From Streptomyces griseiscabiei (GTDB taxonomy: Bacteria; Actinomycetota; Actinomycetes; Streptomycetales; Streptomycetaceae): 64,000 nucleotides of DNA. The notes under the pieces were generated by a model, which saw only the letters and a program-made list of their open reading frames with translations, made no database searches and was not told the origin of the DNA. Below are positions 18,778-64,000 of this stretch, one piece after another. The first letter of the stretch is position 1, and every line of letters starts with the position of its first letter. The stretch is taken from NCBI RefSeq assembly GCF_020010925.1, contig NZ_JAGJBZ010000001.1:2542001-2606000 (forward strand), written 5' to 3'. The translations under genes and the position numbers were made by a program.

Positions 18778-22776
<3,999 letters not shown>

Positions 22777-45845: not shown

Positions 45846-47453
45846 TCAGGCGACCGTCACGTCCACGGGATCCGATTCGGTCGATCCCCTCGCGTTGGTA
45901 AGGACGACCTTCAGGCTGTGCTTGCCCTTCGGAACCCCGGACAGAGCTACCTGAGGCGACTGTGCGTTCGGCGAATCGGCGGCCAGCTGGCCCTCACCGA
46001 CGACTGCCCCGTCGAGGTAGAAGGTGTACGAGGTGGCGTTGGTGCCCCACCACAGGTTCGCGGTGGCGGTGAAGGTGCCGTCCTTGTCCCAGTTGTCGTG
46101 GCTGACCACGGGCTTGCCCGGGGCGGCATCCGTGACCGTGACAGTCGTGGTGTTCGTGGACGTGGTGCCCTTCGAGTTGATCAGTTCGGCCCGGTACGCG
46201 TAGGTGCCGTTGGGCCTGTCCTTGAATTCGGTCACGACTGACTGCGAGGTGCCGCTGACTGTCGTGGGCACCCGCGCGGCGACGAGCTTGTCGTTCTCGT
46301 AAAGACGGAAGAAGCTGCCTGGCGTGCCGTGCCAAAGGTTCATCTTCACGCTGTAGTTGCCGTCATGGAGGCCGTGGGTCCACCCGCTGGTGTTCGACAG
46401 GGTGCCGGCGCCAGCAGCCGAGGAAGCGGAGACGAAGTTCCGCAGAGCGTCGCGCGTGGCGTAGTACGCGGGCTTGGGGTTGTACTCCTCGTCGAACATG
46501 AGGGGCTTCGCGCCCGGCAGCCACGTGTAGGCGTGCTTGTCGGTGAAGCCCCAGAAGCTGATGTCCCGGATTCCGGCCGCCAGCGCCTCGGCCATGACGT
46601 CCCCGTAGATCTGCGTCTGCTGATCCACGTCGTAGGTGTGCACGTCGAGTTCGGTGATCGCGACTTCGAGTCCGAGCTTCTGGTAGGACTTCGTCATCTC
46701 TGTGATGACTCCGGGCTCGGGACCCGCCTGTGTCTCGTGCATCTCGAAGCCCACCCCGTCGATGGGCACACCGTCGGCGACCATGCCGGCCACTAGGTCG
46801 TAGAGCTCCTGGCGCTTCGCCGGGTAGAACTCCACCAACGCCTCGTTGATGAACAGCTTCGCCTCGGGGTCAGCGGCGTGCGCGATCCGGAACGCTTCCG
46901 CGATGTAGTCCTCGCCGAGCACCTCGTAGAAGTGGTTCGGCGCGAGGCCGGTGCCGCCGAAGGTGGAGAACGGCTCGGTCATCACGTCCCACCGGTCCAT
47001 CTTTCCGGCGTAGCGGTCCATGATCGTGTTGAAGTGAGTCTTCATGACCGCGCGCAACTCGTCCGGGTCGGTGACGTCGGTCACGTATTCCGGGTTGCAG
47101 CACTGGGAGATGAGCCCGTGTCCCTTGACTACCATGTCGTTGTCTTCAACGAAGTCGACGAGCCGGTCGAGGCCCCCGAACTCGAAGTCGCCCTCCGTGG
47201 GCTGGACGAATTTCCACTTCAGCTCGTTCTCGGGAGACAAGCTGTTGAACTGTTCCGCCAGCACCTCGCCGAACTTCGGTTCGTCGAGATAGGTGGGGTT
47301 GGTCGCCCCCGAGCCGATGAGGATTCCCTCCTTCGCTGCCAGTTCGCGGAGGGTCGCGTCTGAATCAGCTGAGGCGCCGGTGGTGGGGAGGGCCACGGTC
47401 AAGAGCCCTATGGTGACAGTTGCGAGCGCCGCGCCGATGCGGTGCATTCTCAT
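45846..47453 (-). CDS. Secreted GH10 protein, divergent; candidate tomatinase (saponin glycosidase)
   Basis: A 535-residue protein. A Sec signal (IGAALATVTIGLLTVALP) is cleaved near ASA. The GH10 barrel shows LSPENELKWKFVQPTEG, acid/base Glu160 in WDVMTEPFS and nucleophile Glu268 in VAITELDVHTYD. Several xylanase signatures are altered: the usual VNEA around the acid/base is MTEP, and the RGHTLVWHSQ loop is KGHGLISQCC. Residues about 365-535 hold two immunoglobulin-like modules with DGNYSVKMNLWHGT and DGTFTATANLWWGT. Established: tomatinases of Clavibacter michiganensis and S. scabiei are GH10 enzymes. The changed subsites and glycosidase neighbours make this a good TomA candidate. The alternative is a xylanase with unusual specificity. 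Confidence 0.85.
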   Translation of the reverse strand: MRMHRIGAALATVTIGLLTVALPTTGASADSDATLRELAAKEGILIGSGATNPTYLDEPKFGEVLAEQFNSLSPENELKWKFVQPTEGDFEFGGLDRLVDFVEDNDMVVKGHGLISQCCNPEYVTDVTDPDELRAVMKTHFNTIMDRYAGKMDRWDVMTEPFSTFGGTGLAPNHFYEVLGEDYIAEAFRIAHAADPEAKLFINEALVEFYPAKRQELYDLVAGMVADGVPIDGVGFEMHETQAGPEPGVITEMTKSYQKLGLEVAITELDVHTYDVDQQTQIYGDVMAEALAAGIRDISFWGFTDKHAYTWLPGAKPLMFDEEYNPKPAYYATRDALRNFVSASSAAGAGTLSNTSGWTHGLHDGNYSVKMNLWHGTPGSFFRLYENDKLVAARVPTTVSGTSQSVVTEFKDRPNGTYAYRAELINSKGTTSTNTTTVTVTDAAPGKPVVSHDNWDKDGTFTATANLWWGTNATSYTFYLDGAVVGEGQLAADSPNAQSPQVALSGVPKGKHSLKVVLTNARGSTESDPVDVTVA

Positions 47454-47611
47454 TGAATGGTGTCTCGCTTTCCTGTTGAAGGATGGTCCGAGGGCACGCT
47501 GCGGTATCCGGACGACGTGGACCGTACGCTGTCTCCCGGCGGCCCACGAACGCGGCTCGGCCCGAGACCGCCTCTGCGGGTGTGCAGAATGCGGAAATTG
47601 AGGGTGGTCGC

Positions 47612-49045
47612 TCAGCGGCCGGCGAGGGCCGGGACGACCTTCGTGGCACACAATTCCGCGAACCAGTGCGCGCTCAGTTTCGGAATGCGCTCGTGGGTGT
47701 CGTAGTCGACCCGGATGATGCCGAACCGCGGGCCGTATCCCATGACCCATTCGAAGTTGTCGAGCAGCGACCACACGAGGTACCCGACAACGCGGGCGCC
47801 CCTCTCGCGAGCACGATGAGCCGCCGTGACGTGATCGATGAGGAACTGTGTTCGGTCGCGGTCGACGACCACGCGCCGGCCACCCGAGTCGTCGACCACG
47901 TCCTCGAAGGCCGCGCCGTTCTCCATCACCATGATCGGCAGTTCGGGGAACTCCTTGGAAAGGGCGACCAGATGATCCTCGAGGCCTCGTGGTTCGATCC
48001 CCCAGTCCATCACCGTTCGCGCCAGCTCGTCGCGGCGGACGAACTCGATGCGCTCCGAGCCCGGGAAGGGCGTGCCGCCGGAGCTTTCGGCGCTGGGGTC
48101 GAAGTCCTGATTCAGACGTACGTGCATGACCTCGTAGTAGTTGACGCCGAGCAGGTCGATGGGCTGGTGGCAGATCTCCAAGTCGCCCGGCAGAACGAAG
48201 CTCCAGTCGGTGAAAGCCCGGGTGTCTTGCAGCAGATCGGCCGGATAGTTCCCGCGGAGCATGGGCCCTGTGAACACGCGGTTGGCCACAGCGTCGAACC
48301 GACGCGCGGCTTCGGCGTCCTCGGGGGTCTCGGCTTCGATGCGGAAGATGTTGAGCACCACGGAAATCTGTGCTTCGGCATTGGTCACGGTGCGCCGCAG
48401 TGCTGCCACCGCGAGTCCGTGGGAAAGGTTGAGGTGGTGCGCAGCCTTGAGCGCATCTGCATGGCTCTTACCGCCAGGCGCGAACACGCCATTGCCGTAC
48501 CCGGCGAAGGAGTTGTTCCACGGCTCGTTGTGGGTTGACCAGACGGCGACCCGGTCCCCGAGGGCCGCCCCCACGATCTCCGCGTACTTCTCGAAGGCGA
48601 ATGCGGTTTCCCGCCCTCGCCAGCCGCCGTAGCGATCCTCCAATGCCTGCGGGAGGTCCCAGTGGTTGAGCGTCACGATCGGCTTGATGCCGCGTGCGAG
48701 CAGTCCGTCGACGAGGCGCGAGTAGAACTCCAGACCCTCCGGATTCGCTTCGCCCTCGCCCGTGGGCATCACGCGCGGCCAGGAGATGGAGAACCGGTAG
48801 GCGTCGAGGTGGAGCGAGGCCATCAGGTCGAGATCGACCTCGACGCGGTGATAGTGGTCCGCGGCGACGTCCCCGGTCGCCCCCTCAGCAGTCTTCCCCG
48901 GGGCGTGGCTGAACGTGTCCCAGATGGACGAGCCTCGACCGCCCTCCCTCGCGCCACCCTCGATCTGGTACGCGGCGGTCGCGGCGCCGAGGATGAAGTC
49001 GGGCGGGAACGCCAAGTGCCCGCGGTCGATGGAGTCGCGATACAT
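47612..49045 (-). CDS. GH1 beta-glucosidase
   Basis: A 477-residue, full-length cytoplasmic GH1 enzyme. FPPDFILGAATAAYQIEGG is the N-terminal signature. The acid/base Glu is in VWSTHNEPWNN and the nucleophile Glu in IMVMENGAAF. YLVWSLLDNFEWVMGYGPRFG is the aglycone-side signature. GAGAGG precedes the ATG. It is transcribed in the same direction as the GH10 gene 158 nt downstream and could share a promoter. It would remove terminal beta-glucose, or galactose, from imported oligosaccharides. Confidence 0.94.
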   Translation of the reverse strand: MYRDSIDRGHLAFPPDFILGAATAAYQIEGGAREGGRGSSIWDTFSHAPGKTAEGATGDVAADHYHRVEVDLDLMASLHLDAYRFSISWPRVMPTGEGEANPEGLEFYSRLVDGLLARGIKPIVTLNHWDLPQALEDRYGGWRGRETAFAFEKYAEIVGAALGDRVAVWSTHNEPWNNSFAGYGNGVFAPGGKSHADALKAAHHLNLSHGLAVAALRRTVTNAEAQISVVLNIFRIEAETPEDAEAARRFDAVANRVFTGPMLRGNYPADLLQDTRAFTDWSFVLPGDLEICHQPIDLLGVNYYEVMHVRLNQDFDPSAESSGGTPFPGSERIEFVRRDELARTVMDWGIEPRGLEDHLVALSKEFPELPIMVMENGAAFEDVVDDSGGRRVVVDRDRTQFLIDHVTAAHRARERGARVVGYLVWSLLDNFEWVMGYGPRFGIIRVDYDTHERIPKLSAHWFAELCATKVVPALAGR

Positions 49046-49363
49046 GGATCAGCCTCTCTGGTGACGTGGCGCCAAAACCTATCACCTGAACTGTTATCGG
49101 CACAGGGTTGCGTCAAGGCGAACTGCGACTTCACATTCGCGATGACTTCCGCTGCCGAACATCCACGTTGACCTGAGGGGAAGACGGCGATCGACTCACG
49201 ATGGGCGTGCTTCTGCAGGGATCGACCAATCGGCGCACTTCGGACCAAGCCGTTTCGCCGTCACGGCAGTTGCGGGTGCGTACGGCAACGACGGCAGCCG
49301 ACGAGGCGCTTGCCAACGCTGACCAGCGCAGGGCTGCCTGAACGCCACAGGTCCTGACCGACC
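49046..49363. other. Divergent control region of GH1 and a LacI gene
   Basis: Contains TGAACTGTTA at 49087-49096 just upstream of GH1; TGAACTGT recurs at 51620. A minus-strand stretch with AALRWSALASASSAAVVAVR near 49245-49345 looks weakly coding but is unassigned. Confidence 0.4.
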
Positions 49364-50458
49364 ATGGCCGGTGTCGGTGCGGTCCCTGGGCTGGTGCCGT
49401 CAGGCAGAGCGCCCCAGGTCGGGCGTAAGGTGGCCGTCGGGTTGCGGCTGGACGGCTCCGGCAGCCGGCGCTTGGAGGGTCTCGGTGGTGCGTCGCGGGT
49501 GACGAGCGCGGATGTCGCGCGGGAGTCAGGCGTGTCGCGGTCAACGGTGAGCTTCGTACTCAACTACGTGCCGAAACAGACCATCCCGGAAGCGACGCGA
49601 CAGAAGGTTCTGGCGGCTGCCGAGCGGTTGGGTTACACCCCGAACGGGCCCACGCAGGCACTGTCGCGAGGACGCGGCAGCACTGTGCTGCTGCGCCTGC
49701 CGGACTTTCCGCCCAGCTCGATCGTCGCCGAGCTCGATCGGGGATTGGCCTCGCAAGGATTGATGCTGGTGACCCATACGGCCAGCCCGGGCCGCCAGCC
49801 GGCTCTATCGCTGGCCGCCCCGGTCGCGGTACCGGGACTGACCCCCTTCGACGCAAGGCAAGTCGTCGCATTTCAGGCACGCGGCGCCCGGGTGGTACTG
49901 CCAGGACCCGACGACCCGCCGCCTCCCCGTGACGACGCGGGCCGCGTCGTCGGCGCGGCCCAGGCGACCCACTTGGCCTGGCGCGGCACCGTCCGCATCG
50001 GCTACGTCCACCCCGCCGATCCCCGGCTCGGACCGATGTCCGACCGGCGCCACGCGGGCGCCGACGAAACAGCGCGCCGGCTCGGCCTGCCTATGGTGCC
50101 CTCGCGTCGCATGCCCGACGACGGGGACTTCACGCCGATACTGCGCAGTTGGCCGGCACAAGCGCCCGTCACCGCGATCGCCGCGTTCAACGACGACGTC
50201 GCCCTGGCGATCTTGAACGCCGCGTGGGTTCTGGGCGTGGAAGTTCCCTCCGAGCCGGCCGTGATCGGCGCGGACGACATCGCGGCCGCCCGGTACGCCT
50301 GCCCACCGCTGACTACGATCCGCGGCTCCAACAAGCCCTTTGGGGCCATGCTGGCCGGGTGGGTTCTGCAGCGGCTCGACGCCGGCGGAGTCGCGCCCCC
50401 CAGCTCGGACGAACCTCCGGTGTGGACACCGGACATCGTGGCCCGAGCGTCCGCCTGA
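49364..50458 (+). CDS. LacI-family regulator
   Basis: A regulator of up to 364 residues. The helix-turn-helix VTSADVARESGVSRSTVSFV begins only at about residue 46, so the real start is probably later, for example GTG 49499. The hinge is NGPTQALSRGRGSTVLL, and the effector domain ends EPAVIGADDIAAARYACPPLT. It is divergent from GH1/GH10 and upstream of a cutinase relic, so control of the glycosidase island is likely. Confidence 0.85.
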   Translation: MAGVGAVPGLVPSGRAPQVGRKVAVGLRLDGSGSRRLEGLGGASRVTSADVARESGVSRSTVSFVLNYVPKQTIPEATRQKVLAAAERLGYTPNGPTQALSRGRGSTVLLRLPDFPPSSIVAELDRGLASQGLMLVTHTASPGRQPALSLAAPVAVPGLTPFDARQVVAFQARGARVVLPGPDDPPPPRDDAGRVVGAAQATHLAWRGTVRIGYVHPADPRLGPMSDRRHAGADETARRLGLPMVPSRRMPDDGDFTPILRSWPAQAPVTAIAAFNDDVALAILNAAWVLGVEVPSEPAVIGADDIAAARYACPPLTTIRGSNKPFGAMLAGWVLQRLDAGGVAPPSSDEPPVWTPDIVARASA

Positions 50459-50462
50459 CCGG

Positions 50463-50753
50463 TTCTCCAATGTCGGAGTCTGCAGCCAAGGAGCCCTCAC
50501 GGGTGCGGCCACCGTGGCCGTCATACCCGGCGCCACAGAGCCGAAGGTCAAGGCAGTTGTGCTCTTCGGCAACCCCATCCGCGGGTTCCCGACCTACCGT
50601 CAGGTGACCGGCACCTACCAGGCACGCACGCTCGACGACTGCGCGACCGGCGACCCGATCTGTGGCGGCGGGACGGACTCCGCCGCCCACGGCGCCTACT
50701 CCCAACCGCAACACAACGACTCCGCCGCGGAGTTCATTGCGGCACGCATGTGA
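50463..50753 (+). pseudogene. Cutinase, C-terminal half only
   Basis: The frame reads VGVCSQGALTGAATVAVIPG, VKAVVLFGNPIRGFPTY, TLDDCATGDPICGGG, AHGAYS and DSAAEFIAARM. These are the end of a cutinase: the SQGA nucleophile elbow, the DPIC loop with Asp between its cysteines, and the catalytic His in AHGAYS. The signal peptide and the first third are missing. GYSQGA is changed to VCSQGA. The fragment abuts the LacI stop, so it was probably truncated by rearrangement. Confidence 0.8.
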
Positions 50754-50826
50754 CGCAACGTCCACAGTCCGACAACGGATGCGAGTCATGAGCACCGCTG
50801 AGACCGCCGCCTGACGGCCGCTTGCG

Positions 50827-50858
50827 CCTCCGGCTTCGCGCGCGAGCGGAGCCGGAGG
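50827..50858. terminator. Hairpin between the cutinase relic and TetR
   Basis: CCTCCGGCT (50827-50835) pairs with AGCCGGAGG (50850-50858) across 14 nt, between convergent genes. Confidence 0.6.
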
Positions 50859-50890
50859 TCTTCATCAACCCGGCGGACCGTGAACGACGC

Positions 50891-51538
50891 TCAGTCGGAG
50901 TCGTCGTCGCGGCGGTTGGAGTCGTCCGAAGCCGCCTGCTGCACCCAGTGCGCCCGAGCAGCAGCCACGAGCCGCCAGAAGGCGTCGATGGCCTCGACGA
51001 CATCCAGGTCGTCCCGGTATCGCCGCTGGATCTGGAGCCCGTCCTGCAGGGCGGTCCCCAGCGTGGCGATCATCTCCGGGCTGATCCCCATCGGGGCACC
51101 TTCGGGCGCCTCAGGGCCGGGGTCGAGCGTGAGTGTCTGGGCTGCCTGGTAGTGCTCGACGAAGTACGGGTGCGCCGGATGATCGCGATCAATCGCCTCG
51201 GCCGAGAGGATGATGTACAGGGACGTCAGTCCCTCGTGCTCCGCGGAGTGACGCGCGACCTCGCGGGACCGCGTAGCGACATCGGTGGCGTGCTGCTCCG
51301 ACAGGTAGTCGGCAACGGACGTATCGCGCAAGTTGAGCACTTCGACCAGGAGTTCTTCCTTGTCGGCGAAGTGGTGGAGAAGCCCTGTCTGTGTCAGGCG
51401 CATCCGCCTGGCGAGCTCACGCATCGACGAGTGTGCGTATCCGGATTCAGCAAAGAGCTCGGCTGCAGCGGCGACGATCTCCCGGCGGCGCTGGAGCCCC
51501 TTGCGATAGGGCCCCCGAGGCCCGGTGCTTTCCGCCAT
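50891..51538 (-). CDS. TetR-family transcriptional regulator
   Basis: A 215-residue regulator. The DNA-binding domain is RREIVAAAAELFAESGYAHS, then RELARRMRLTQTGLLHHFADKEELLVEVL. The C-terminal half is a helical ligand domain with LGTALQDGLQIQRRYRDDLD, resembling TetR_C proteins. It is divergent from the importer operon starting at 51807 and a plausible second regulator of the island. The ligand is unknown; a steroid-like aglycone would suit a TetR protein, but that is speculation. Confidence 0.88.
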   Translation of the reverse strand: MAESTGPRGPYRKGLQRRREIVAAAAELFAESGYAHSSMRELARRMRLTQTGLLHHFADKEELLVEVLNLRDTSVADYLSEQHATDVATRSREVARHSAEHEGLTSLYIILSAEAIDRDHPAHPYFVEHYQAAQTLTLDPGPEAPEGAPMGISPEMIATLGTALQDGLQIQRRYRDDLDVVEAIDAFWRLVAAARAHWVQQAASDDSNRRDDDSD

Positions 51539-51806
51539 GCCTTCAACATACAGCGACGCGGCGGCCCGTTTGACCTGGGTGTGGGCGTGACGATGAAAAC
51601 TCCACGAAAACTTGTCAGGTGAACTGTGTTACGTGATACTGACGGCCACCGCCACTCCGAGACGACATCTCAGCCGGGGACGCAGCGGCATACACGACGT
51701 TCGGGTGACGGGGTTCGCGCACGTCTCAGGAGCGTGGTGCGGCCGGGGGGGGCGGCTCCTTGCCGCCGCAACATCGCGGCACACCGCCTGGAAATAAGGA
51801 GTACAG
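51539..51806. promoter_or_regulatory. Divergent promoter region of TetR and the importer operon
   Basis: 268 bp with an AT-richer patch near 51595-51640 containing TCAGGTGAACTGTGTTACG. The TGAACTGT part is shared with the GH1 upstream region. The importer's own ribosome site is AAGGAG at about 51796. Confidence 0.4.
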
Positions 51807-53081
51807 ATGCGATCCATTCGAAGGTCCCTCGCTGTGCTTGCAGCGGTCGCATTGACCGCCGTCACCGCCGGGTGCGGATCCAGCGACGAGGGCGATGCCG
51901 GCGGCAAGATCACCCTCAACGTCTCGACGTTCAGCGAGTGGGGTTACAGCGGCCTGCTGAAGGAGTACCAGAAGCTCCACCCCGACATCACGATCAAGCA
52001 CAACCGCTTCGCCACGAGTGATGAGGCCAAGGAGCAGTTCCAGACCGCGCTCGGCGCGGGCTCGGGTCTCGCCGATGTCATCGGTGTCGACAACAGCTGG
52101 ATGCCGCAGATCCTCAAGTACCCGGACAACTTCGTGGATCTCTCCTCACCGAAGGTCGAGGGCCGCTGGCTGGACTGGACAACGAAGATCGCCACCACGG
52201 ACGACGGCAAGCTGCTCGGATACGCGACGGACCTGGGACCGCAGACGATCGCCTACCGCGCCGACCTGTTCAAGGAGGCCGGTCTGCCGAACGACCGCGA
52301 GGAGGTCGCCAAGCTCTTCGGTGGCGACAACGCGACATGGGACGACTTCTTCGCCGTCGGCGAGAAGTTCAAGGCCGCCAAGACAGGTCCGGCGTTCTAC
52401 GATGCGTCGGCCTCGGTGGCGACCGGCTGGACCGACCAGTACGAGGTGCTCTGGGAGGACCCCAAGAACGGCGAGATCATCGCCGGCGAGAACAAGGACC
52501 TCCGGAACATCTACGACACCGTGATGTCGCATGAGGGCCTGTCCGCAGACCTCGCGCGGTTCAGTGAGGACTGGGTCAGCGCATTCCAGAAGGACAAGTT
52601 CGCGGTGATGCTCGCGCCTTCGTGGATGCTCGGCGTCATCAAGGGCAATTCGGCCGGGGTCAAGGGCTGGGATATCGCCGACGTCTTCCCCAACGGCGGT
52701 GTCAACAGCGGCGGTTCGTACCTCAGCGTGCCGAAGCAGTCCAAGCACCCCGAGGAGGCGCAGGCGCTGGCGGAGTGGCTCACCGCCCCGGAGCAGCAGA
52801 TGAAGGCGTTCAAGGCGTCGGGCAACTTCCCCAGCCAGGTCGAGGCCCAGAAGAGCCCTGAGATGCAGAAGGTGACCGAACCCTTCTTCAACGATGCGCC
52901 CGTAGGAAAGGTCCTCGCCGAGCGCGCGTCGAACATCAGCGTGGTCCCGTACAAGGGTGACAACTACTTCGCGATCACAGCGGCATTCAACGACGCGGTC
53001 AACCGTGTCTCGGTCGACAAGACCCACTCCGCCAAGGAGTCATGGGACATGTTCGTCGAGGGACTGGACTCGCTGAAGTGA
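51807..53081 (+). CDS. Extracellular oligosaccharide-binding lipoprotein (CebE-like)
   Basis: A 424-residue solute-binding protein with a Sec signal and lipobox (LTAVTAGCGSS). The mature domain opens KITLNVSTFSEWGYSGLLKEY, with DVIGVDNSWMPQIL and GYATDLGPQTIAYRADLFKE in the ligand cleft. This resembles the cellobiose/oligosaccharide class. Good AAGGAG upstream of the ATG. It heads an importer operon that continues into two GH3 genes, so the ligand is probably the oligosaccharide those enzymes cleave. Confidence 0.92.
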   Translation: MRSIRRSLAVLAAVALTAVTAGCGSSDEGDAGGKITLNVSTFSEWGYSGLLKEYQKLHPDITIKHNRFATSDEAKEQFQTALGAGSGLADVIGVDNSWMPQILKYPDNFVDLSSPKVEGRWLDWTTKIATTDDGKLLGYATDLGPQTIAYRADLFKEAGLPNDREEVAKLFGGDNATWDDFFAVGEKFKAAKTGPAFYDASASVATGWTDQYEVLWEDPKNGEIIAGENKDLRNIYDTVMSHEGLSADLARFSEDWVSAFQKDKFAVMLAPSWMLGVIKGNSAGVKGWDIADVFPNGGVNSGGSYLSVPKQSKHPEEAQALAEWLTAPEQQMKAFKASGNFPSQVEAQKSPEMQKVTEPFFNDAPVGKVLAERASNISVVPYKGDNYFAITAAFNDAVNRVSVDKTHSAKESWDMFVEGLDSLK

Positions 53082-53098
53082 TCGGTTCGTCCGCGCGC

Positions 53099-53130
53099 TC
53101 GGGGGCGCCCTCCGCGGACGGCGCCCCCGA
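53099..53130 (+). terminator. Attenuating hairpin between binding protein and permeases
   Basis: TCGGGGGCGCC (53099-53109) and its complement (53120-53130), 10-nt loop. It lies between the first and second genes of one operon, where partial termination or mRNA stabilisation makes more binding protein than permease. Confidence 0.75.
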
Positions 53131-53152
53131 TTCACCATCGGAGGAAGAGCGC

Positions 53153-54232
53153 ATGGTCCGTCCGGCAGGGAGCGCGTCACCCCGTGGTGATGCCTCACCT
53201 CCACACACGCCCTCGCCCTGGCATCAGCGTCTGGGCCGCTGGGACATGAAGGCGTCGCCGTACGCCTATATCTCCCCGTTCTTCATCCTGTTCGGGATCG
53301 TCGGCCTGTTCCCGCTGCTGTACACCGCCTACGTCTCGCTGCACGACTGGGACCTCATCGGTGGGCAGAGCGAATTCGTCGGGCTCGACAACTTCACCTT
53401 TATCCTCGACCAGCCGGTCTTCTGGGATGCGATGGGCAACACCGTCAGCATCTTCCTGCTCTCGACGGTCCCCCAGATTCTGATCGCCCTCGTACTTGCC
53501 AGCCTCCTGCACGCGAACATTCGTGCGCGCACCTTCTGGCGGATGGGGGTACTGCTGCCGTACGTGATCGCTCCGGTCGCCGTGACGCTGATCTTCTCGC
53601 GCATGTTCGCGGACCAGTCCGGTCTGGTGAACGCGCTTCTCGAGCAGCTGGGCATGGATCCGATCGGATGGCACCGGGACAGCCTTCCGGCGCACATCGT
53701 CATCGCAAACATGGTCAACTTCCGGTGGACCGGCTTCAACACCCTCGTGCTGCTTGCGGCGATGCAGGCGATCTCCCGTGACCTGTACGAGGCGGCGATC
53801 CTCGACGGCGCGGGGCGGATTCGACAGTTCTTCTCCGTCACGGTGCCGTCCGTGCGTCCGACGCTCATCTTCGTCGTGATCACGTCCACGATCGGCGGGC
53901 TGCAGATCTTTGACGAGCCGCGTCTGTACGACACGCAAGGGCTCGGCGGCAGTTCAGGGCAGTGGAAGACGATCACTCTGTACCTGTACGAACTCGGCTG
54001 GAACCAGCAGCGACTGGGCCGTGCAGCGGCCGTCGCGTGGCTGCTCTTCCTGCTGATCATCGCATTCGCTCTGGTCAGCAACTGGCTGTCGCGCCGCATC
54101 GCTTCCGGAGACGACGCCACGGCCGGCTCCCGGCAGACGCGCCGTGCCGCCCGACGCAGCGCACCGAGCGCAGCAGCTCGTACGCCCGACTCCTCCGCAC
54201 CGTCCGGTGCCACGCCCGGGAGCAGCACGTGA
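53153..54232 (+). CDS. Carbohydrate ABC transporter permease (CebF-like)
   Basis: A 359-residue permease. The start is ATG 53153 with GGAGGAAG upstream. Helices begin YISPFFILFGIVGLFPLLY, and the EAA loop is YEAAILDGAGRIRQFFSVTVP. A long Ser/Ala/Arg-rich tail follows the last helix. It overlaps the next permease by 4 nt. Confidence 0.92.
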   Translation: MVRPAGSASPRGDASPPHTPSPWHQRLGRWDMKASPYAYISPFFILFGIVGLFPLLYTAYVSLHDWDLIGGQSEFVGLDNFTFILDQPVFWDAMGNTVSIFLLSTVPQILIALVLASLLHANIRARTFWRMGVLLPYVIAPVAVTLIFSRMFADQSGLVNALLEQLGMDPIGWHRDSLPAHIVIANMVNFRWTGFNTLVLLAAMQAISRDLYEAAILDGAGRIRQFFSVTVPSVRPTLIFVVITSTIGGLQIFDEPRLYDTQGLGGSSGQWKTITLYLYELGWNQQRLGRAAAVAWLLFLLIIAFALVSNWLSRRIASGDDATAGSRQTRRAARRSAPSAAARTPDSSAPSGATPGSST

Positions 54233-55143
54233 CCCCTCCTTCCATCCCATACATCGAGCAGACGTCCGGTCGTGGAGCCGCCCGTGCGGCGCGCCGTCGG
54301 CGTGGACGGAACGACGGCGCTGTGCGCCGACCGGGAAAGACGACCTACGTCATCCTCACTCTGGTCGCGCTCATTTCGATCTTCCCGCTCTACTACGCGC
54401 TCCTGCTCGCGTCCTCGACGTCGGCAGAGGTCGCGCAGAACCCGATCCCCTCGCCGATCCCGGGCGGGCAGCTGGCCGACAATCTCACGCGGGTCTTCGA
54501 GTCGGACATCGACCTGCCGCGCGCGGTCTGGAACTCGGTCTTCGTCTCGGTGACAACGGCCCTCGCCGTCGTGTTGGTGTCCACGTTGGCCGGCTTCGCC
54601 TTCTCGAAGCTCCGGTTCAAGGGACGTGCCGGCCTCCTCACATTCGTGGTGGGCACCATGGCGGTACCCACTCAGCTCGGGGTCGTGCCGTTGTTCATCG
54701 TCATGCGCGAGATGGGCCTGACGGGAAGCCTCTGGGCGGTCATCATCCCCGGTATCGCCTCCGCCTTCGGCGTGTTCTGGATGACGCAGTACCTCCAGTC
54801 GGCGCTGCCCTATGAGCTCATCGAGGCAGCCCGCATCGACGGGGCATCAACGTTCCGGATCTTCCGCTCCATCGTGCTGCCGGCCGCCAGGCCCGCGGCC
54901 GCCATGCTGGGCCTGTTCACCTTCATCGGGGCGTGGACCCAGTACTTCTGGCCGTCGATCGTGCTCGGCACGACCAATCCGACACTCCCCGTCGCGCTGC
55001 AACTGCTGCAGGCCGGGTTCTTCAAGGACATCCCCCTCATCATGACCGGCGTTCTCGTGTCCGTGGTGCCGCTTCTCGTGCTGTTCGCCGTACTCGGCAG
55101 GCAGTTGGTCGCAGGCGTCATGCAGGGAGCCGTCAAGGGGTGA
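54229..55143 (+). CDS. Carbohydrate ABC transporter permease (CebG-like)
   Basis: A 304-residue permease starting at GTG 54229 inside the preceding stop (GTGA). An arginine-rich cytoplasmic tail precedes six helices. The EAA loop is IEAARIDGASTFRIFRSIVLP and the end is LVAGVMQGAVKG. It completes the importer; the ATPase is presumably a shared MsiK. Confidence 0.92.
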   Translation: MTPPSIPYIEQTSGRGAARAARRRRGRNDGAVRRPGKTTYVILTLVALISIFPLYYALLLASSTSAEVAQNPIPSPIPGGQLADNLTRVFESDIDLPRAVWNSVFVSVTTALAVVLVSTLAGFAFSKLRFKGRAGLLTFVVGTMAVPTQLGVVPLFIVMREMGLTGSLWAVIIPGIASAFGVFWMTQYLQSALPYELIEAARIDGASTFRIFRSIVLPAARPAAAMLGLFTFIGAWTQYFWPSIVLGTTNPTLPVALQLLQAGFFKDIPLIMTGVLVSVVPLLVLFAVLGRQLVAGVMQGAVKG

Positions 55144-55270
55144 CCCGCCCGCACCGCACTGCCGGACCGGGACATGTGCCGGTGCACTGACACGGTGCAC
55201 GGCCCCGACCGCCCCGAGGGGGCCTGCACCCAGGCCCCGGGAACGAAATCGAGAGGAACTCCCACCACTC

Positions 55271-57106
55271 ATGCCTGCGACGACTGCATCGGGCAGTACC
55301 ACCTTCCGCGATCTCAACGGCAACGGGCGCATGGAGCCCTACGAGAACCCGCGGCTCAGCGCCGAGGAACGCACGGAAGATCTGTTGACCCGGCTCTCGC
55401 TCGAAGAGAAAGTCGGTCTGCTCTTCCACACAGTCATCGAGATGGGCCCGGGAGGCACCGTCCTCGAAGAGCCCGGTGCGATCAGCAAGTCACCCACCAG
55501 CGAGGTGATCCTGGGCAGGGGGATCAGCCACTTCAACACGCACCGAATCGAAGACCCTCGGGCAGCCGCACGGTGGCACAACGCGATCCAGCGGCTCGCA
55601 GAGAAGACCCCGCACGGCATCCCGGTCACGATTTCCAGCGACCCTCGACACGGATTCCTGGAGAACATCGGGGCTTCCTTCACTGCAGGTCCGTTCTCGC
55701 AGTGGCCCGACGCCCTCGGCCTTGCGGCACTGCGCGACCCGGACACCGTGCGCGAGTTCGCGCGCCGGGTGCGCGAGGAGTACCGCGCCGTCGGCATCCG
55801 CATGGCACTGCATCCTCAGGTCGACCTCGCCAGCGAACCCCGCTGGGCACGCCAACTCCAGACGTTCGGCGCCGACACCGATCTCGTGGTCGCCTACACG
55901 CGCGCGTACCTCGAAGGTTTCCAGGGCGCGGCGCTCGACTCAACGAGCATCGCCTGCGTCACCAAGCACTTCCCCGGCGGCGGCGCGCAGCTGGACGGCG
56001 AGGATGCGCACTTCCCGTACGGTCGCGAGCAGGTCTACCCGGGTGGTGCGTTCGAGGAGCACCTCCGTCCGTTCGTCACCGCCGTCGAGCACGGCACCGC
56101 CGCGGTCATGCCCTACTACGGCATGCCGGTCGGTCTTGAGATCGACGGCGAACCGATCGAGGAGGTCGGGTTCGGGTACAACAAGCAGATCCTCACCGGG
56201 CTGCTGCGCGAGCGGCTGGGCTTCGACGGGCTGATCGTCACGGACTGGGAGCTGGTGAACGACAACCACGTCGGGGACCAGGTCCTGCCCGCACGCGCGT
56301 GGGGGGTTGAAGAGCTCGACGCCCGCGAGCGCATGGTCAAGATCCTCAATGCCGGCGCGGACCAGTTCGGCGGTGAACAGTGCACGGATCTCCTGCTTGA
56401 GCTCGTACGGGATGGCGTCGTCCCGGAGAGCAGGATCGACGAGTCGGCGCGCCGCGTCCTGCTGATCAAGTTCCGGCTCGGTCTGTTCGACAACCCTTTC
56501 ATCGACGAAGATGCCGCCGTGGCCGTTGTGGGCAACGCCGAGACCCGGCGGGTCGCCCTGGAGACACAGTCCCGTTCCGTCACCGTCCTGAAGAACTCCG
56601 TGGTCGAAGGAAGGCCAGTGCTTCCGCTCGCCGTGGGCGCGCGCTTGTACGCGGAGGGGATCGATCCGGAGGTCCTCGGCCGGGAGTTCACCCCCGTGAC
56701 GACGCCGCAGGAGGCAGAACTGGCCATCGTGCGCATCGACGCACCGTTCGAGCCGCGGGACGACCTGTTCCTGGAGTCGTATTTCCACCAGGGGTCTCTT
56801 GACCTGCCCCCCGGCCTCGTACACCGACTGCGTAGGATCGCCCACTACGCCCCGCTGATCGTGGATGTCGCCTTGGACCGCCCGGCCATCCTCACGCCGC
56901 TCGTCGACGCGCTCGCCGGACTGACCGTCACCTTCGGTGTCTCGGATGACGCTCTGCTCACCGCCCTCACCGGCCGCATCGCTCCGGAGGGCAAACTTCC
57001 CGTCGAGCTTCCGCGGTCGATGCAGGCCGTACGAGAGTCCGCGCCGGACGCGCTGGCGGACACCGCCGACCCGCTGTTCCCCCTGGGATCGGGGCTGGAG
57101 ATCTGA
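55271..57106 (+). CDS. GH3 glycosidase (beta-glucosidase/xylosidase-like)
   Basis: A 611-residue cytoplasmic enzyme. The start MPATTASGSTTFRDLNGNGR, then AEERTEDLLTRLSLEEKVGL, is typical of one GH3 branch. The nucleophile Asp is in GFDGLIVTDWELVND. CVTKHFPGGGAQLDGEDAHF is the conserved Lys-His barrel motif. The C-terminal alpha/beta domain is shorter than usual and no fibronectin-like domain follows. It follows the importer by 127 nt. Specificity within GH3 cannot be read by eye. Confidence 0.9.
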   Translation: MPATTASGSTTFRDLNGNGRMEPYENPRLSAEERTEDLLTRLSLEEKVGLLFHTVIEMGPGGTVLEEPGAISKSPTSEVILGRGISHFNTHRIEDPRAAARWHNAIQRLAEKTPHGIPVTISSDPRHGFLENIGASFTAGPFSQWPDALGLAALRDPDTVREFARRVREEYRAVGIRMALHPQVDLASEPRWARQLQTFGADTDLVVAYTRAYLEGFQGAALDSTSIACVTKHFPGGGAQLDGEDAHFPYGREQVYPGGAFEEHLRPFVTAVEHGTAAVMPYYGMPVGLEIDGEPIEEVGFGYNKQILTGLLRERLGFDGLIVTDWELVNDNHVGDQVLPARAWGVEELDARERMVKILNAGADQFGGEQCTDLLLELVRDGVVPESRIDESARRVLLIKFRLGLFDNPFIDEDAAVAVVGNAETRRVALETQSRSVTVLKNSVVEGRPVLPLAVGARLYAEGIDPEVLGREFTPVTTPQEAELAIVRIDAPFEPRDDLFLESYFHQGSLDLPPGLVHRLRRIAHYAPLIVDVALDRPAILTPLVDALAGLTVTFGVSDDALLTALTGRIAPEGKLPVELPRSMQAVRESAPDALADTADPLFPLGSGLEI

Positions 57107-57149
57107 TGTCCCGTTCGTGGAACCCGCACTCGCACAGAAGGATCACGTC

Positions 57150-59567: not shown

Positions 59568-59593
59568 CACGCGAGACCGCCGCCCCGCCAGCA

Positions 59594-59631
59594 GCCCGTG
59601 GGGAGCGGACCTGACACCGCTCCCCACGGGC
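59594..59631 (+). terminator. 15-bp perfect hairpin after the GH3 pair
   Basis: GCCCGTGGGGAGCGG (59594-59608) and its complement (59617-59631), 8-nt loop, 26 nt after the stop. It ends the importer/GH3 operon; the next gene may have its own promoter. Confidence 0.85.
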
Positions 59632-59767
59632 CTTCGCCTGGCCAACTATCCGGCATCGCGCCGCACCCCTGGGACGGCGATGGCTGAGAGCGCCGGCAGC
59701 GACCTGGCGCCGTCCGCCGCCCTCGCCCGAAGACACCGCTCAACCGGAAGACATCGATGGGAGCCCC

Positions 59768-61381
59768 TTGCAACACCACGGCATAGACCAGGCCACGGGC
59801 CAGCTGATCGTCGGCGGTACGCCGTACCTGATCCGCGGCATCGAGGTCCACAACTCCACCTCGTCCCACGCCGACTACCTGGAACCCGTGTGGAAGCGGT
59901 GTGCGGACGCAGCGGTCAACACCGTTCTTGCACCGGTCAGTTGGGAGCTTGTGGAACCGACGGAGGGAGAGTTCGACTTTCACTTGGTCGACGCCATGCT
60001 CTCCGGTGCGCGCGACCACGAGCTCAAGCTGGTGCTTCTCTGGTTCGGCAGCTGGAAGAACGCTTCGTCGAGCTACGTGCCGGCCTGGGTCAAGCTCGAT
60101 CCGGTCCGTTTTCCGCTGCAGGTCGACGAGGCCGGCGATCCGCTGGACAACCTCAGCCCGTTCTCCACGAACAACCGCGACGCCGACGCGGCCGCTTTCG
60201 CGGCCTTCATGGAGCACCTCGCACGCGTCGACGGCCGCGAGAAGACCGTGATCATGGTGCAGGTCGAGAACGAGGTCGGGCTGCTCGGGGCACCGCGCTC
60301 CTACGGAGCGGACGCGGCAGCCGCATGGGCGGCTCCCGTTCCGGCAGCCCTTGCGGAAGCACTGCGCAACGGAGCCTCCCCGTACGTCCAGGCCCCGGAC
60401 GAGCCGTCCACCCCGACGTGGGACCTCCTGACGGGCGACTCCGACCGGAAGGCCGAGTTGTTCATGGCCTGGCACTACGCCTGCTACATCGAGCACGTCG
60501 CCGCCGCAGGCCTGGCCCGCTACGACATCCCGCTGTTCGCCAACGCCTGGCTGGACTCGAGCGTGCCGAACGGATCGGAGTCCGCGAACATCGCCGTCGC
60601 CGGCGGCAGCGCGCCGGGGGTGTTCCCCAGTGGGGGGCCACTACCGCATGTCAGCGCTGCCTGGAAGCTGGCCGCTCCCTCGCTCGCGTTCCTCGCCCCA
60701 GACGTGTACTTCGGCGACTTCGACATCCCGTTCAAGCGCTACGCGGACACGAACACCACCTTGTTCGTGCCCGAGATGCGCGCCGACTGCCACGGGGTCT
60801 CGCACAGCTTCCTCGCCATCGGACAGTACGGTGCCATCGGGGTCTCGCCGTTCGGCTTCGACTCCCTCGACGATGACCGCACGGTGGAGCTGCGCCGTAT
60901 CTATGCGCAGCTCGCGGCGCTGGAGAACGACATCCTTGCCGCACAGCCGCGAGGGCGCGTGCGCGGCTTCCGGGTCCCGGCCTCCAAGGAGGAGACGTTC
61001 GCCCTCGGCAAGTACGAGTTCGTGATCAGGGCCTATCCGGAACACGGCAACGGCGAGCGGTTCGGCTATGGGCTCCTGCTGCAGTTCGACGACGACGTGT
61101 TCATCGCCGTCGGCGACAACTTCACGGTCTGCCCGCGCTCGCCGGACGGCCGGCCGGTGGCCATCTTGCAGGCGGACGAACTCGTGGCAGGCACGGGCCG
61201 GCTCCGTCCGCGAAGGCGCCTCAATGGTGACGAGACGTTGTCCGGCACCGGCATCAGGATCGCGGAGCACCCGGCCCCGATGCACGGTTTCATGGCGACC
61301 AGCGGGATCCCGTCAGGGGTGGTGAGGTTCTCGCTGTACTTCCCCGGGGCGCCGAGGGGCACCGCCGCCCCGGACTACTGA
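59768..61381 (+). CDS. GH35-like beta-galactosidase with DUF5597-type C-terminus
   Basis: A 537-residue cytoplasmic TIM-barrel enzyme. VHNSTSSHADYLEPVWKR and TVLAPVSWELVEPTEGEFDF are the usual barrel start. The acid/base Glu is in IMVQVENEVGLLG and the nucleophile Glu in TLFVPEMRAD. The C-terminal third, ending HGFMATSGIPSGVVRFSLYF, fits DUF5597. TTG start with GGGAG 5 nt upstream. Beta-galactosidase is the main activity of such proteins. It overlaps the convergent SDR gene by 7 nt. Confidence 0.88.
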   Translation: MQHHGIDQATGQLIVGGTPYLIRGIEVHNSTSSHADYLEPVWKRCADAAVNTVLAPVSWELVEPTEGEFDFHLVDAMLSGARDHELKLVLLWFGSWKNASSSYVPAWVKLDPVRFPLQVDEAGDPLDNLSPFSTNNRDADAAAFAAFMEHLARVDGREKTVIMVQVENEVGLLGAPRSYGADAAAAWAAPVPAALAEALRNGASPYVQAPDEPSTPTWDLLTGDSDRKAELFMAWHYACYIEHVAAAGLARYDIPLFANAWLDSSVPNGSESANIAVAGGSAPGVFPSGGPLPHVSAAWKLAAPSLAFLAPDVYFGDFDIPFKRYADTNTTLFVPEMRADCHGVSHSFLAIGQYGAIGVSPFGFDSLDDDRTVELRRIYAQLAALENDILAAQPRGRVRGFRVPASKEETFALGKYEFVIRAYPEHGNGERFGYGLLLQFDDDVFIAVGDNFTVCPRSPDGRPVAILQADELVAGTGRLRPRRRLNGDETLSGTGIRIAEHPAPMHGFMATSGIPSGVVRFSLYFPGAPRGTAAPDY

Positions 61382-62145
61382 TGGGTGCCGCCGTCAATAC
61401 GGATCTCCGTGCCGGAGATGAAGGCGCCGTCGTCGGAGATGAGCGTGGCCACGACTGCTGCCACCACCTCCGGCGACCCGTAGCGCTCCCGGACTGCGGG
61501 AGTGAGCTTCGCGAAGAGGCTCCAGTCGGTGTCCTCCGGCACCAGTGACGCGAAGTTCTCGGTCATGGCGCTGACGATGCCGCCAGGGCAGATGTTTACC
61601 GCGCGCAAGCCCTGCTTGGCGTACTCCTGGGCGATGCTGTGCGTGAAGGACAGGATCCCGCCCTTGCTGGCGGAGTACGCGGCCAGGAACGGATGGGCGA
61701 ACTGGGCTGACGTGGAGCTGAAGTTGACCACGACGCCGTTACCCGTCTCCAGCAGCGCGGGCAACGCGGCCCGGGTGACCAGGAACGTGCCCGTGAGGTT
61801 CACGGCAAGGACGCGGTTCCACAGCTCGAGCGAGCACTGGTGTGTATGCGCTCCGCGCAGCATGCCGGCGATGTTCACGAGCGCGTCGAGCCCGCCGAGG
61901 GTGGCAATCGTTTCACCCACGACGTCGACGACCGCGTCCGCGTCCGCCACGTCCAGCGCCGCGGTGACGAGCCGCTCGCCGGTGCCGGCCTTCGCGGCCA
62001 GGCCGGCGGTCCCGCTGAGCCCCTCTTCCTCGATGTCCGTCGCGACGACCGCCGCTCCTTCCTCGAGCAGCCTCAACGTCGTCGAGCGTCCGATGCCCGA
62101 AGCGGCTCCGGTGACGAACACGCGTCTGCTGCTGAGTCGTTCCAT
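61375..62145 (-). CDS. Short-chain dehydrogenase/reductase
   Basis: A 256-residue classical SDR. The cofactor motif is VFVTGAASGIGRSTT (T-G-x3-G-x-G). VNIAGML is the NAG-like motif. The catalytic Ser is in NFSSTSAQF, and Tyr/Lys are in AAYSASKGGIL. The end FISGTEIRIDGGTHQ is standard. D-I in VVATDIEEEG after strand 2 favours NAD. It sits in the glycosidase island, so it could act on a sugar or on a steroid aglycone hydroxyl. Both are inference. Confidence 0.92.
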   Translation of the reverse strand: MERLSSRRVFVTGAASGIGRSTTLRLLEEGAAVVATDIEEEGLSGTAGLAAKAGTGERLVTAALDVADADAVVDVVGETIATLGGLDALVNIAGMLRGAHTHQCSLELWNRVLAVNLTGTFLVTRAALPALLETGNGVVVNFSSTSAQFAHPFLAAYSASKGGILSFTHSIAQEYAKQGLRAVNICPGGIVSAMTENFASLVPEDTDWSLFAKLTPAVRERYGSPEVVAAVVATLISDDGAFISGTEIRIDGGTHQ

Positions 62146-62200
62146 GAGGTTCCTCCAGGTCTCGACGGTGCGCTTGCCCTGGCCGCGAATCGCCGCCCGC

Positions 62201-64000
62201 TCATTCCGGGATCGGTACCTGGCGGTACGGCGCGATACGGACCGGCCCCATGAGGCCGTATTGCTGCCGGGGCTTCTCGGCCTGACCCGGGAAGCCTTCC
62301 GTGACCCGAAGGCGATTGCGCAGCGGTGTCGCCACCCGGACCGTGATGCTGTTGTCTCCTTGCTTCACGTAGCCACTGAGATCGATCCGCCGGCCGACCT
62401 GGTCGGACGGTGGCAGCGTCGTGCCGTTGACCGTCACCTCGAAGGTGTCGGTGACCTGTCCGAGGTCGAGGTAGGCCCCGTCCAACCGCACGAGCCGTAC
62501 CGTGGTGCGATAGGTGCCGACCCCGGAGACGTCCTCAAGGCCGGGGATGGCGGACCAGGGTGCAAGGCGGTTCAGGTGATGCTCGTGCTCGCTGACTTCG
62601 AGCTTGCCGTCCGGGCCTCGGTGCCAGTCCTCGACGGAGAGCTCCCACACGTTCAGCTCCTGGGCTGCCCCGGTGGGAGGAACGGTCACCCTCCGTTCGG
62701 AGCCGTCGTCAAGCTTCACGGTGTACGAACCAGCCGTTGAGCCCCGCAGGAGCAGACCGCCACCGGGCGCCGTCACGACCTCTCCGCCCGTGGTGGCGAC
62801 CACATGACGGGCACTGCCCGGTACGAGAACGATGATGGTGGATTCGCCGGGTGCGAGCCGCACCGGGACTGTGATCCGCCCGCGTTCTGTTCGGTACTGG
62901 GCGACTGAGGTGACCGTGCCCGTCCAGGCATCCAGTTCGTAGGGGGTGCCTCGGCCCTCCAGGGCGACCTCCTCGGACACGGCTCTTTCCGAGGAGTTGT
63001 GCAGGTGATACAGCGCGCCTCGCGACAGTGTGCGACGCAGGGCGAGCACGGCGGGAGCGACGCGCGTGTCCGCTGCGGGACGGATGCCGAGCACCTCGAA
63101 GACGGCGGGCAACCCGCTCGGTTCGGCGACGTGGCGTACCGAGGCCTGCTTGAGCAACAGGTCCATCAACTCGGCCAGTGCCGCATCCTGCTGTGCCGCC
63201 CGGTGGGCGCCAGGCGTGCGGGTCGGCGGCGCACCGACGATCACTACGGGCAGGCCGCTGCGGGCGTGCGACAGCAGCAGTCGGGCGGTGGCTATGGGCA
63301 ACGTGGGCTGGCGGTCGAGGATCAGCGCACGATAGGCGGGTCCTTCCGGGGCAAGGCGCCGGTCACGTACGCGGGTTCCGTCGAGTTGTGCCGGGCCGGC
63401 GAAGTCGTAAGTGAAGCCGTCCAGCCCGGCCGGGATGCGCATGCCGGTCCCGTAGGCGTGGCGGTAGACGACCAAGTCCACCGAAGGCCTGCCCTGGCGC
63501 AGGGCGAACTGCGTGCGCGCAGTCCAGTCGACGATCTTGCCGGTGTCGTTCCACGTGGGCTGGCGCGGCCCCCATGCCTCGGAGAAACCGTTGCCGCCCT
63601 GGAGGGTGAACGGTGAGAAGCCGGGCCAGGTGGTTCCCAGGCCCGCCTCGGTGGCGAAGCCGTGATAGACGACCTGGTTGACACCGTGGGCGAAGGCGGC
63701 GTTGAAGTGCTTGAGCATCTGCGGCCAGGTCTGCGCGTACGCCTCGCCGTAGATCGCGCAGCCTTCGAGCGAGAAGACGCGCTGCCCGGACAGGTGCACC
63801 GCACCGGACGAGAGCCATCGGTATGGCTCGTCGGTGTAGTCGGGCGCCGCGCCGAGCGACTCGGTCTCGTTGATGTCGAGGGCCGCGCCGATCGTGGGAA
63901 CGTCGGTGGTGGTGCCGTAGGGCTGGGCCCGCAGTCTCAGGCCCATGGCGTGCGCCCAGGACTTCAGTGGCTCGACGTGCTCACTGATGTACAGGTCCGT
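62201..64000 (-). CDS. GH106-like alpha-L-rhamnosidase, C-terminal 600 residues (runs off the right edge)
   Basis: The frame is open across the right edge; only the last 600 residues are seen. NETESLGAAPDYTDEPYRWL, FSLEGCAIYGEAYAQTWPQM, HGVNQVVYHGFATEAGLGTT and WNDTGKIVDWTARTQFALRQ fit the large GH106/glycosyl-hydrolase group of alpha-L-rhamnosidases. A C-terminal beta-sandwich has WELSVEDWHRGPDGKLEVSE and YRTTVRLVRLDGAYLDLGQV. The start and any signal lie outside the window. GH106 also includes rhamnogalacturonan-active enzymes, so the substrate is open. Confidence 0.8.
   Translation of the reverse strand, partial: TDLYISEHVEPLKSWAHAMGLRLRAQPYGTTTDVPTIGAALDINETESLGAAPDYTDEPYRWLSSGAVHLSGQRVFSLEGCAIYGEAYAQTWPQMLKHFNAAFAHGVNQVVYHGFATEAGLGTTWPGFSPFTLQGGNGFSEAWGPRQPTWNDTGKIVDWTARTQFALRQGRPSVDLVVYRHAYGTGMRIPAGLDGFTYDFAGPAQLDGTRVRDRRLAPEGPAYRALILDRQPTLPIATARLLLSHARSGLPVVIVGAPPTRTPGAHRAAQQDAALAELMDLLLKQASVRHVAEPSGLPAVFEVLGIRPAADTRVAPAVLALRRTLSRGALYHLHNSSERAVSEEVALEGRGTPYELDAWTGTVTSVAQYRTERGRITVPVRLAPGESTIIVLVPGSARHVVATTGGEVVTAPGGGLLLRGSTAGSYTVKLDDGSERRVTVPPTGAAQELNVWELSVEDWHRGPDGKLEVSEHEHHLNRLAPWSAIPGLEDVSGVGTYRTTVRLVRLDGAYLDLGQVTDTFEVTVNGTTLPPSDQVGRRIDLSGYVKQGDNSITVRVATPLRNRLRVTEGFPGQAEKPRQQYGLMGPVRIAPYRQVPIPE

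What the first reader, a model, noticed from the sequence alone, without database searches (positions are those of the whole stretch)
45846..64000. Candidate steroidal-glycoalkaloid (saponin) deglycosylation and uptake island
Seen in one stretch: secreted GH10, GH1, CebEFG-like importer, two distinct GH3 enzymes, GH35-like beta-galactosidase, SDR and GH106-like rhamnosidase, with LacI and TetR regulators. Known: tomatinases of Clavibacter and S. scabiei are GH10. Tomatine carries galactose, two glucoses and xylose; solanine and chaconine carry rhamnose with galactose or glucose. Inference: GH10 releases the sugar chain outside the cell, the importer takes it in, and the GH set dismantles it.
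Basis: partly seen in the sequence, partly recalled or inferred. Interest (0 to 1): 0.85.

Follow-up and report, generated by a model that had tools for sequence, protein, structure and literature searches.

The report
Known tomatinase region of scab Streptomyces
This is the already described tomatinase gene of potato-scab bacteria, sitting among sugar-cutting and sugar-importing genes on a mobile DNA island; those neighbours probably use up the sugar chain that tomatinase cuts off a plant defence chemical, which remains to be tested.

Summary
The gene list is real and the central guess is right, but it is known. The GH10 (45846-47453, -) is the tomatinase TomA of scab Streptomyces: published tomA PCR primers match it exactly, and the protein is 100% identical in S. 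scabiei 87.22 and three other scab species, 99.6% in S. acidiscabies. A functional tomatinase was reported for S. scabies 87-22 (Seipke and Loria 2008; title and citing passages seen). The region lies in a 105-kb insertion in bacA, nearly base-for-base the S. scabiei copy: the published colonization region. Added here: TetR, GH1, the importer and both GH3 genes stay with TomA in two diverged Streptomyces copies; a GH1 at 74-79% stays with it in three of five... other genera loci are detailed below. LacI, GH35 and GH106 were not found in G110, so the rhamnose (solanine/chaconine) part is unsupported. Extracellular cleavage, import and intracellular dismantling is the best reading; only the TomA step has published experimental support.

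The parts
8089..8964 (+). bacA (uppP), integration target of the island
   Evidence: Pfam BacA 293.4 bits
8836..8843 (.). attL palindrome TTCATGAA; left end of the 105-kb island, which runs on past the window to about 114072
   Evidence: last mismatch to S. scabiei at 8832, then identical; variant att site at 114065 and partial bacA 3' copy at 114068-114177
45846..47453 (-). tomA, secreted GH10 tomatinase
   Evidence: published tomA primers at 46099-46117 and 46493-46511; 100% to S. scabiei 87.22; Pfam GH10
47612..49045 (-). GH1 beta-glucosidase-type enzyme, no export signal seen
   Evidence: TIGR03356 527.2 bits, cut-off 478.5; 74-89% identical copy in 6 of 8 other TomA-like loci
49364..50458 (+). 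LacI-family regulator, not part of the conserved core
   Evidence: Pfam; no match at 1e-10 in G110 or the second Car8 copy
50891..51538 (-). TetR-family regulator
   Evidence: Pfam; 85-88% in the two diverged Streptomyces copies, a 32-39% TetR in 5 more of 8 loci
51610..51650 (.). conserved stretch between tetR and the binding-protein gene, weak candidate operator
   Evidence: kept in three copies; shared 8-mer with the GH1 upstream stretch, but that 8-mer also occurs at three other places
51807..53081 (+). lipoprotein sugar-binding protein of the importer
   Evidence: Pfam SBP_bac_8; lipobox; PDB hits
53150..54232 (+). importer permease 1
   Evidence: BPD_transp_1
54229..55143 (+). importer permease 2
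   Evidence: BPD_transp_1; frame checked
55271..57106 (+). GH3 enzyme, nearest solved chain named beta-glucosidase
   Evidence: Pfam; 9ul7 898 bits
57150..59567 (+). GH3 enzyme with Fn3-like domain, nearest solved chains named beta-xylosidase
   Evidence: Pfam; 7zb3 584 bits over nearly full length; NCBIfam xylosidase/arabinosidase 605.9 bits, under its cut-off of 1050
59768..61381 (+). GH35 beta-galactosidase-type enzyme
   Evidence: NCBIfam GH35; 8z47 268.8 bits
61375..62145 (-). SDR oxidoreductase, substrate unknown
   Evidence: Pfam; 66% copy beside the Planobispora TomA-like gene
62201..64000 (-). GH106-like enzyme (gene continues to 65098), twin-arginine-type N-terminus
   Evidence: Pfam 127 bits

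Best explanation
The stretch is the tomA section of the scab-Streptomyces colonization region (CR), a 105-kb mobile island integrated in bacA. Shown or published: TomA is the tomatinase gene of these species, and the island is nearly identical to that of S. scabiei. Inferred: TomA, secreted, cuts the sugar chain off alpha-tomatine or a related saponin outside the cell (activity published; product lycotetraose recalled); the TetR senses the glycoalkaloid or a product and releases the divergent operons; the binding protein and two permeases, with an ATPase encoded elsewhere, import the oligosaccharide; and cytoplasmic GH3 (xylosidase-like), GH3 and GH1 (glucosidase-like) and GH35 (galactosidase-like) enzymes break it into xylose, glucose and galactose. 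LacI, SDR and GH106 look like additions outside the core; GH35 is needed by the scheme but is also outside the core.
For: Primer match; 100% identity to S. scabiei TomA; island ends and near-identity, as described in passages of PMC4057263, PMC8369830 and PMC10711302. GH10 apart from 30 other Streptomyces GH10s, 100/100, with W to S (10 of 10) and N to T/S (10 of 10) at positions invariant in the 30. Core genes kept at 81-90% and in the same order in G110 and the second Car8 copy. Export signals on TomA and the binding protein, none seen on GH1, both GH3s or GH35 (simple features). Nearest solved chains match the sugars Gal-Glc-Glc-Xyl of lycotetraose (passage of PMC10522338).
Against: No substrate is shown for any neighbour gene. 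GH35, the only galactosidase-type enzyme here, was not found in G110. Outside Streptomyces the permeases are only 27-32% alike and the binding protein has no match at 1e-6, so the import step is not conserved by descent. TetR matches at 32-39% could be chance neighbours; no control was run. Relatives also occur in soil genera not known here as plant pathogens, so tomatine may not be the original substrate. Passages in PMC10711302 say that presence of tomA does not predict pathogenicity.
Confidence: 0.6

Rival explanations
1. A general hemicellulose-utilisation cluster: GH10 as a xylanase, with GH3, GH1, GH35 and GH106 taking apart xylan and pectin side chains.
For: The solved chains closest to the GH10 by sequence are xylanases (196.4 bits at best; 142 matches, best 60 shown). 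The island carries other polysaccharide genes (GH43, GH2, GH127).
Against: Published primers identify the gene as tomA; it lies apart from 30 other Streptomyces GH10s and lacks residues invariant in them.
Confidence: 0.08
2. TomA is only a detoxifying shield; the neighbouring sugar genes are unrelated passengers of the island that serve other plant sugars.
For: The island holds several further importers and GH genes, and no experiment links the neighbours to tomatine in the papers found (open-licence library only).
Against: GH1, TetR, importer and both GH3s stay with TomA in two diverged Streptomyces copies, and a 74-77% GH1 in four non-Streptomyces loci.
Confidence: 0.25
3. The section also handles the potato glycoalkaloids solanine and chaconine, with GH106 removing rhamnose outside the cell.
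For: GH106 has a twin-arginine-type N-terminus; these species cause potato scab (papers).
Against: GH106 was not found in G110; it scores only 127 bits to the family and 80.2 bits to the best solved chain; published solanine/chaconine clusters use GH2, GH3 and GH78 (passage of PMC10653915).
Confidence: 0.12

Closest known systems
tomA of Streptomyces scabiei 87-22 within the colonization region (CR.A; the 105-kb module of PAISt)
   Same: TomA identical; island identical from 8836 to 114079 but for one mismatch and one 1.3-kb insertion; same site in bacA
   Different: Only the insertion at 72578-73900 and one base; host flanks are other DNA of about 83-94% identity
TomA of Clavibacter michiganensis (CMM_0090, chp/tomA region)
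   Same: Also a tomatinase on an island (passages of PMC4059874 and PMC7692107); GH10 membership is recalled
   Different: Sequence and gene order were not reached here, so no comparison was made
Sphingobium RC1 tomatine catabolism (SpGH3-4, SpGH39-1, SpGH3-1/-3)
   Same: Removes the sugars of alpha-tomatine with a set of GHs including GH3 (passages of PMC10653915)
   Different: Stepwise removal by GH3 and GH39 and further breakdown of the steroid; no GH10 step in the passages seen
Arthrobacter S41 / Glutamicibacter solanine-chaconine cluster (GH2, GH3, GH78)
   Same: Glycoalkaloid deglycosylation by clustered GHs in actinobacteria (passage of PMC10653915)
   Different: Other GH families; its rhamnosidase is GH78, here the candidate is GH106

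Membership tests
TomA tomatinase (scab Streptomyces) | Sequence identity to the S. scabiei 87-22 gene and match of published tomA primers | tested here: met
   100% over 535 aa; both primers match exactly inside the gene
TomA tomatinase (scab Streptomyces) | GH10 domain with export signal and both catalytic glutamates | tested here: met
   Pfam GH10; signal-like N-terminus; glutamates kept (motif rows)
TomA tomatinase (scab Streptomyces) | Activity on alpha-tomatine | not testable with these tools
   Published for S. scabies 87-22 (title and citing passages seen; paper not held)
Colonization region CR.A | About 105 kb in the 3' end of bacA between att palindromes | tested here: met
Colonization region CR.A | Carries nec1 | not tested
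   I did not look for nec1
GH10 xylanases | Groups with other GH10s of the genus and keeps their invariant active-site W and N | tested here: not met
   the 30 comparison GH10s are not themselves enzymatically characterised, and the tree program warned that long branches meet
Solanine/chaconine cluster (GH2, GH3, GH78) | GH78 rhamnosidase beside GH2 and GH3 | tested here: not met
   no GH78 among the 44 ORFs scanned with Pfam; GH2 genes lie 28-30 kb or more away (15625-21792); the rest of the island was not scanned

The most novel reading that the evidence does not exclude
TomA-like GH10s with the W-to-S and N-to-T/S active site form a distinct saponin-cleaving branch of GH10, usually encoded with a highly conserved GH1 and a TetR, plus an importer and GH3s, in actinobacteria well beyond the scab pathogens (Microbacterium, Terrabacter, Planobispora, Actinomadura). 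It would be a transferable system for feeding on saponin sugar chains, not only a detoxification factor.
Probability: 0.4. Interest if true: 0.45.

Novelty: already known. Interest (0 to 1): 0.25.

Why it matters
It shows that the window comes from a Streptomyces carrying the potato-scab colonization region, nearly identical between species and so recently moved. The open question it sharpens is whether tomatinase is only a shield or the first step of using the released sugar chain; the core genes found here are the ones to delete for that test.

Tried and rejected
Xylan-utilisation reading: disfavoured by primers, tree and active site. LacI or CebR control: the adjacent LacI is absent from both diverged copies and no CebR-type box was found. 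Rhamnose route as part of the core: not supported. First GH10 alignment: the 11 of 27 search loci that matched on the - strand appear to have been read on the wrong strand (visibly so for L010); its column count was discarded and redone, which takes the strand from tblastn. Permease 2 was translated in the wrong frame (5 internal stops); redone, ignore the earlier rows. The GH106 translation printed was out of frame too; searches use the right one. No structure was predicted. Rows left out of the tree: the five near-identical scab copies (L036-L039, L041), L060 (same figures as the Planobispora gene) and the 109-aa partial L005.

Full report
What is there. Small corrections: the GH10 starts at 47453, not 47774; the second permease is 54229-55143; the GH106 gene runs to 65098, outside the window. 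Just left lie a GH127 gene and a second LacI.

What it is. The GH10 is tomA. PCR primers published for tomA in scab Streptomyces (PMC4057263, passages) match the window exactly at 46099-46117 (+) and 46493-46511 (-), inside the GH10 frame. A scan of named genomes with two peptide patterns gave 11 loci: S. scabiei 87.22, S. stelliscabiei, S. europaeiscabiei, S. acidiscabies and S. turgidiscabies Car8 at 100% (rounded), a second Car8 copy at 85%, and Microbacterium (2), Planobispora, Actinomadura and Terrabacter at 61-66%; the finer comparison gives 99.6% for S. acidiscabies and 100% for the other four. Of 392 Streptomyces genomes, 263 match at 1e-40, but only 3 (own, G296, G110) at 81% or more; the next is 44%. 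G296 has the contig length of S. scabiei 87.22. At stricter cut-offs, 2 of 394 genomes of the class match at 1e-110, own included, and 2 of 398 of the family of G763 at 1e-100, G763 included.

The island. Against S. scabiei 87.22, the flank left of 8832 is 82-97% identical in 500-base bins where it aligns. Then comes TTCATGAA at 8836-8843 inside the 3' end of bacA. From there to 114079 there is one mismatch (36028) and one 1.3-kb insertion (72578-73900). At 114065 lies a variant att site with a partial copy of the bacA 3' end, after which the aligned pieces are 83-89% identical. [quoted passage not shown] passages seen). I did not look for nec1.

In a tree of 40 GH10 domains, the window protein and nine relatives lie on one side of a 100/100 branch; the other 30 are the closest other Streptomyces GH10 loci (27) and three from this genome. 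The program warned that long branches meet, the root is at the midpoint, and none of the 30 is an enzymatically characterised xylanase, so this separates TomA from its genus-mates rather than from proven xylanases. Identity to the 30 is 33-43%, to the nine 57-87%. Positions invariant in the 30 are changed in the ten: W to S at 116 (10 of 10), N to T (9) or S (1) at 159 just before the acid/base glutamate, D to E at 204 (10 of 10), Y to A/S/N at 205 (10 of 10). Both glutamates are kept in the ten (motif rows). That this W and N shape the -1 subsite of xylanases is recalled. The Actinomadura row has a stop inside the compared stretch. The closest solved chains are xylanases, as expected for the family.

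Which neighbours belong. Eight other TomA-like loci were compared. G110 and the second Car8 copy keep GH10, GH1, TetR, binding protein, both permeases and both GH3s in the same order at 81-90%. Both lack the LacI at 1e-10. G110 also shows no GH35 or GH106 and only a distant SDR (30%, about 40 kb away), with 9.7 kb read beyond its GH3; the Car8 locus ends inside the second GH3 and says nothing there. GH1 at 74-89% is in 6 of 8 loci (weaker matches in Planobispora and Actinomadura); a TetR in 7 of 8 (not Actinomadura, whose locus is short), but at 32-39% outside Streptomyces, which could be chance; the 55271 GH3 at 64-67% in M. oxydans and G1095. Permeases outside Streptomyces are 27-32% alike, absent in Actinomadura, and the binding protein has no match at 1e-6, so a different importer fills that place. 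GH35 relatives (39-43%) lie 3-20 kb from both Microbacterium genes, and a 66% SDR lies about 4 kb from the Planobispora gene.

How it probably works. Simple sequence features suggest export of TomA, a lipobox on the binding protein and a twin-arginine-type start on GH106; GH1, both GH3s and GH35 show none (the same pattern search also flagged SDR and GH127, so it is weak). The 57150 GH3 is closest to solved beta-xylosidases, the 55271 GH3 and GH1 to chains named beta-glucosidase, GH35 to beta-galactosidases. Lycotetraose is Gal-Glc-Glc-Xyl (passage of PMC10522338). Cleavage outside, import and breakdown inside fits, but only the first step has published support. No ATPase was seen among the ORFs scanned here; use of a shared ATPase by such importers is recalled.

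Limits. The key paper (Seipke and Loria 2008) is not held; I saw its title and how others cite it. Clavibacter was not reached. The protein database was off. Ten literature searches, listings plus passages of the papers opened, showed no test of the neighbour genes, in open-licence papers only.

Verdict. Real, well explained, already known. The conserved core and the active-site signature are modest additions.

Noticed in passing
66784-67917 in window numbering (own contig beyond the window; L073:4784-5899, -): A broken gene resembling 3-ketosteroid-delta-1-dehydrogenase (profile pieces 23-191, 402-496 and 483-545 only), beside IclR, MarR and crotonase-like genes; identical in S. scabiei. It may be a remnant of steroid (aglycone) breakdown; an intact relative lies elsewhere in the genome.
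   Followed up: partly
72578-73900 in window numbering (beyond the window): The only sizeable difference from the S. scabiei island is a 1.3-kb insertion holding an integrase-core transposase gene.
   Followed up: partly
15625-40987: The island carries further sugar genes: two GH2, GH43, an alginate-lyase-like protein, two more three-gene importers and a LacI; not analysed further.
   Followed up: no
L040:10001-11611: S. turgidiscabies Car8 carries a second, diverged tomA module (85% TomA) on another contig.
   Followed up: partly
L008:1501-2853: The TomA copy of G110 ends early at a TGA, about 90 residues short of the window protein.
   Followed up: no
L068/L069 (G764): 17459-19069 and 21268-22224 of the joined stretch: Microbacterium sp. 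EYE_78 has two TomA-like GH10 genes about 2 kb apart (63% and 55%).
   Followed up: no
26902-28959: A 685-aa protein with ricin-type beta-trefoil lectin repeats and weak Asp-box matches, likely a sugar-binding hydrolase.
   Followed up: no
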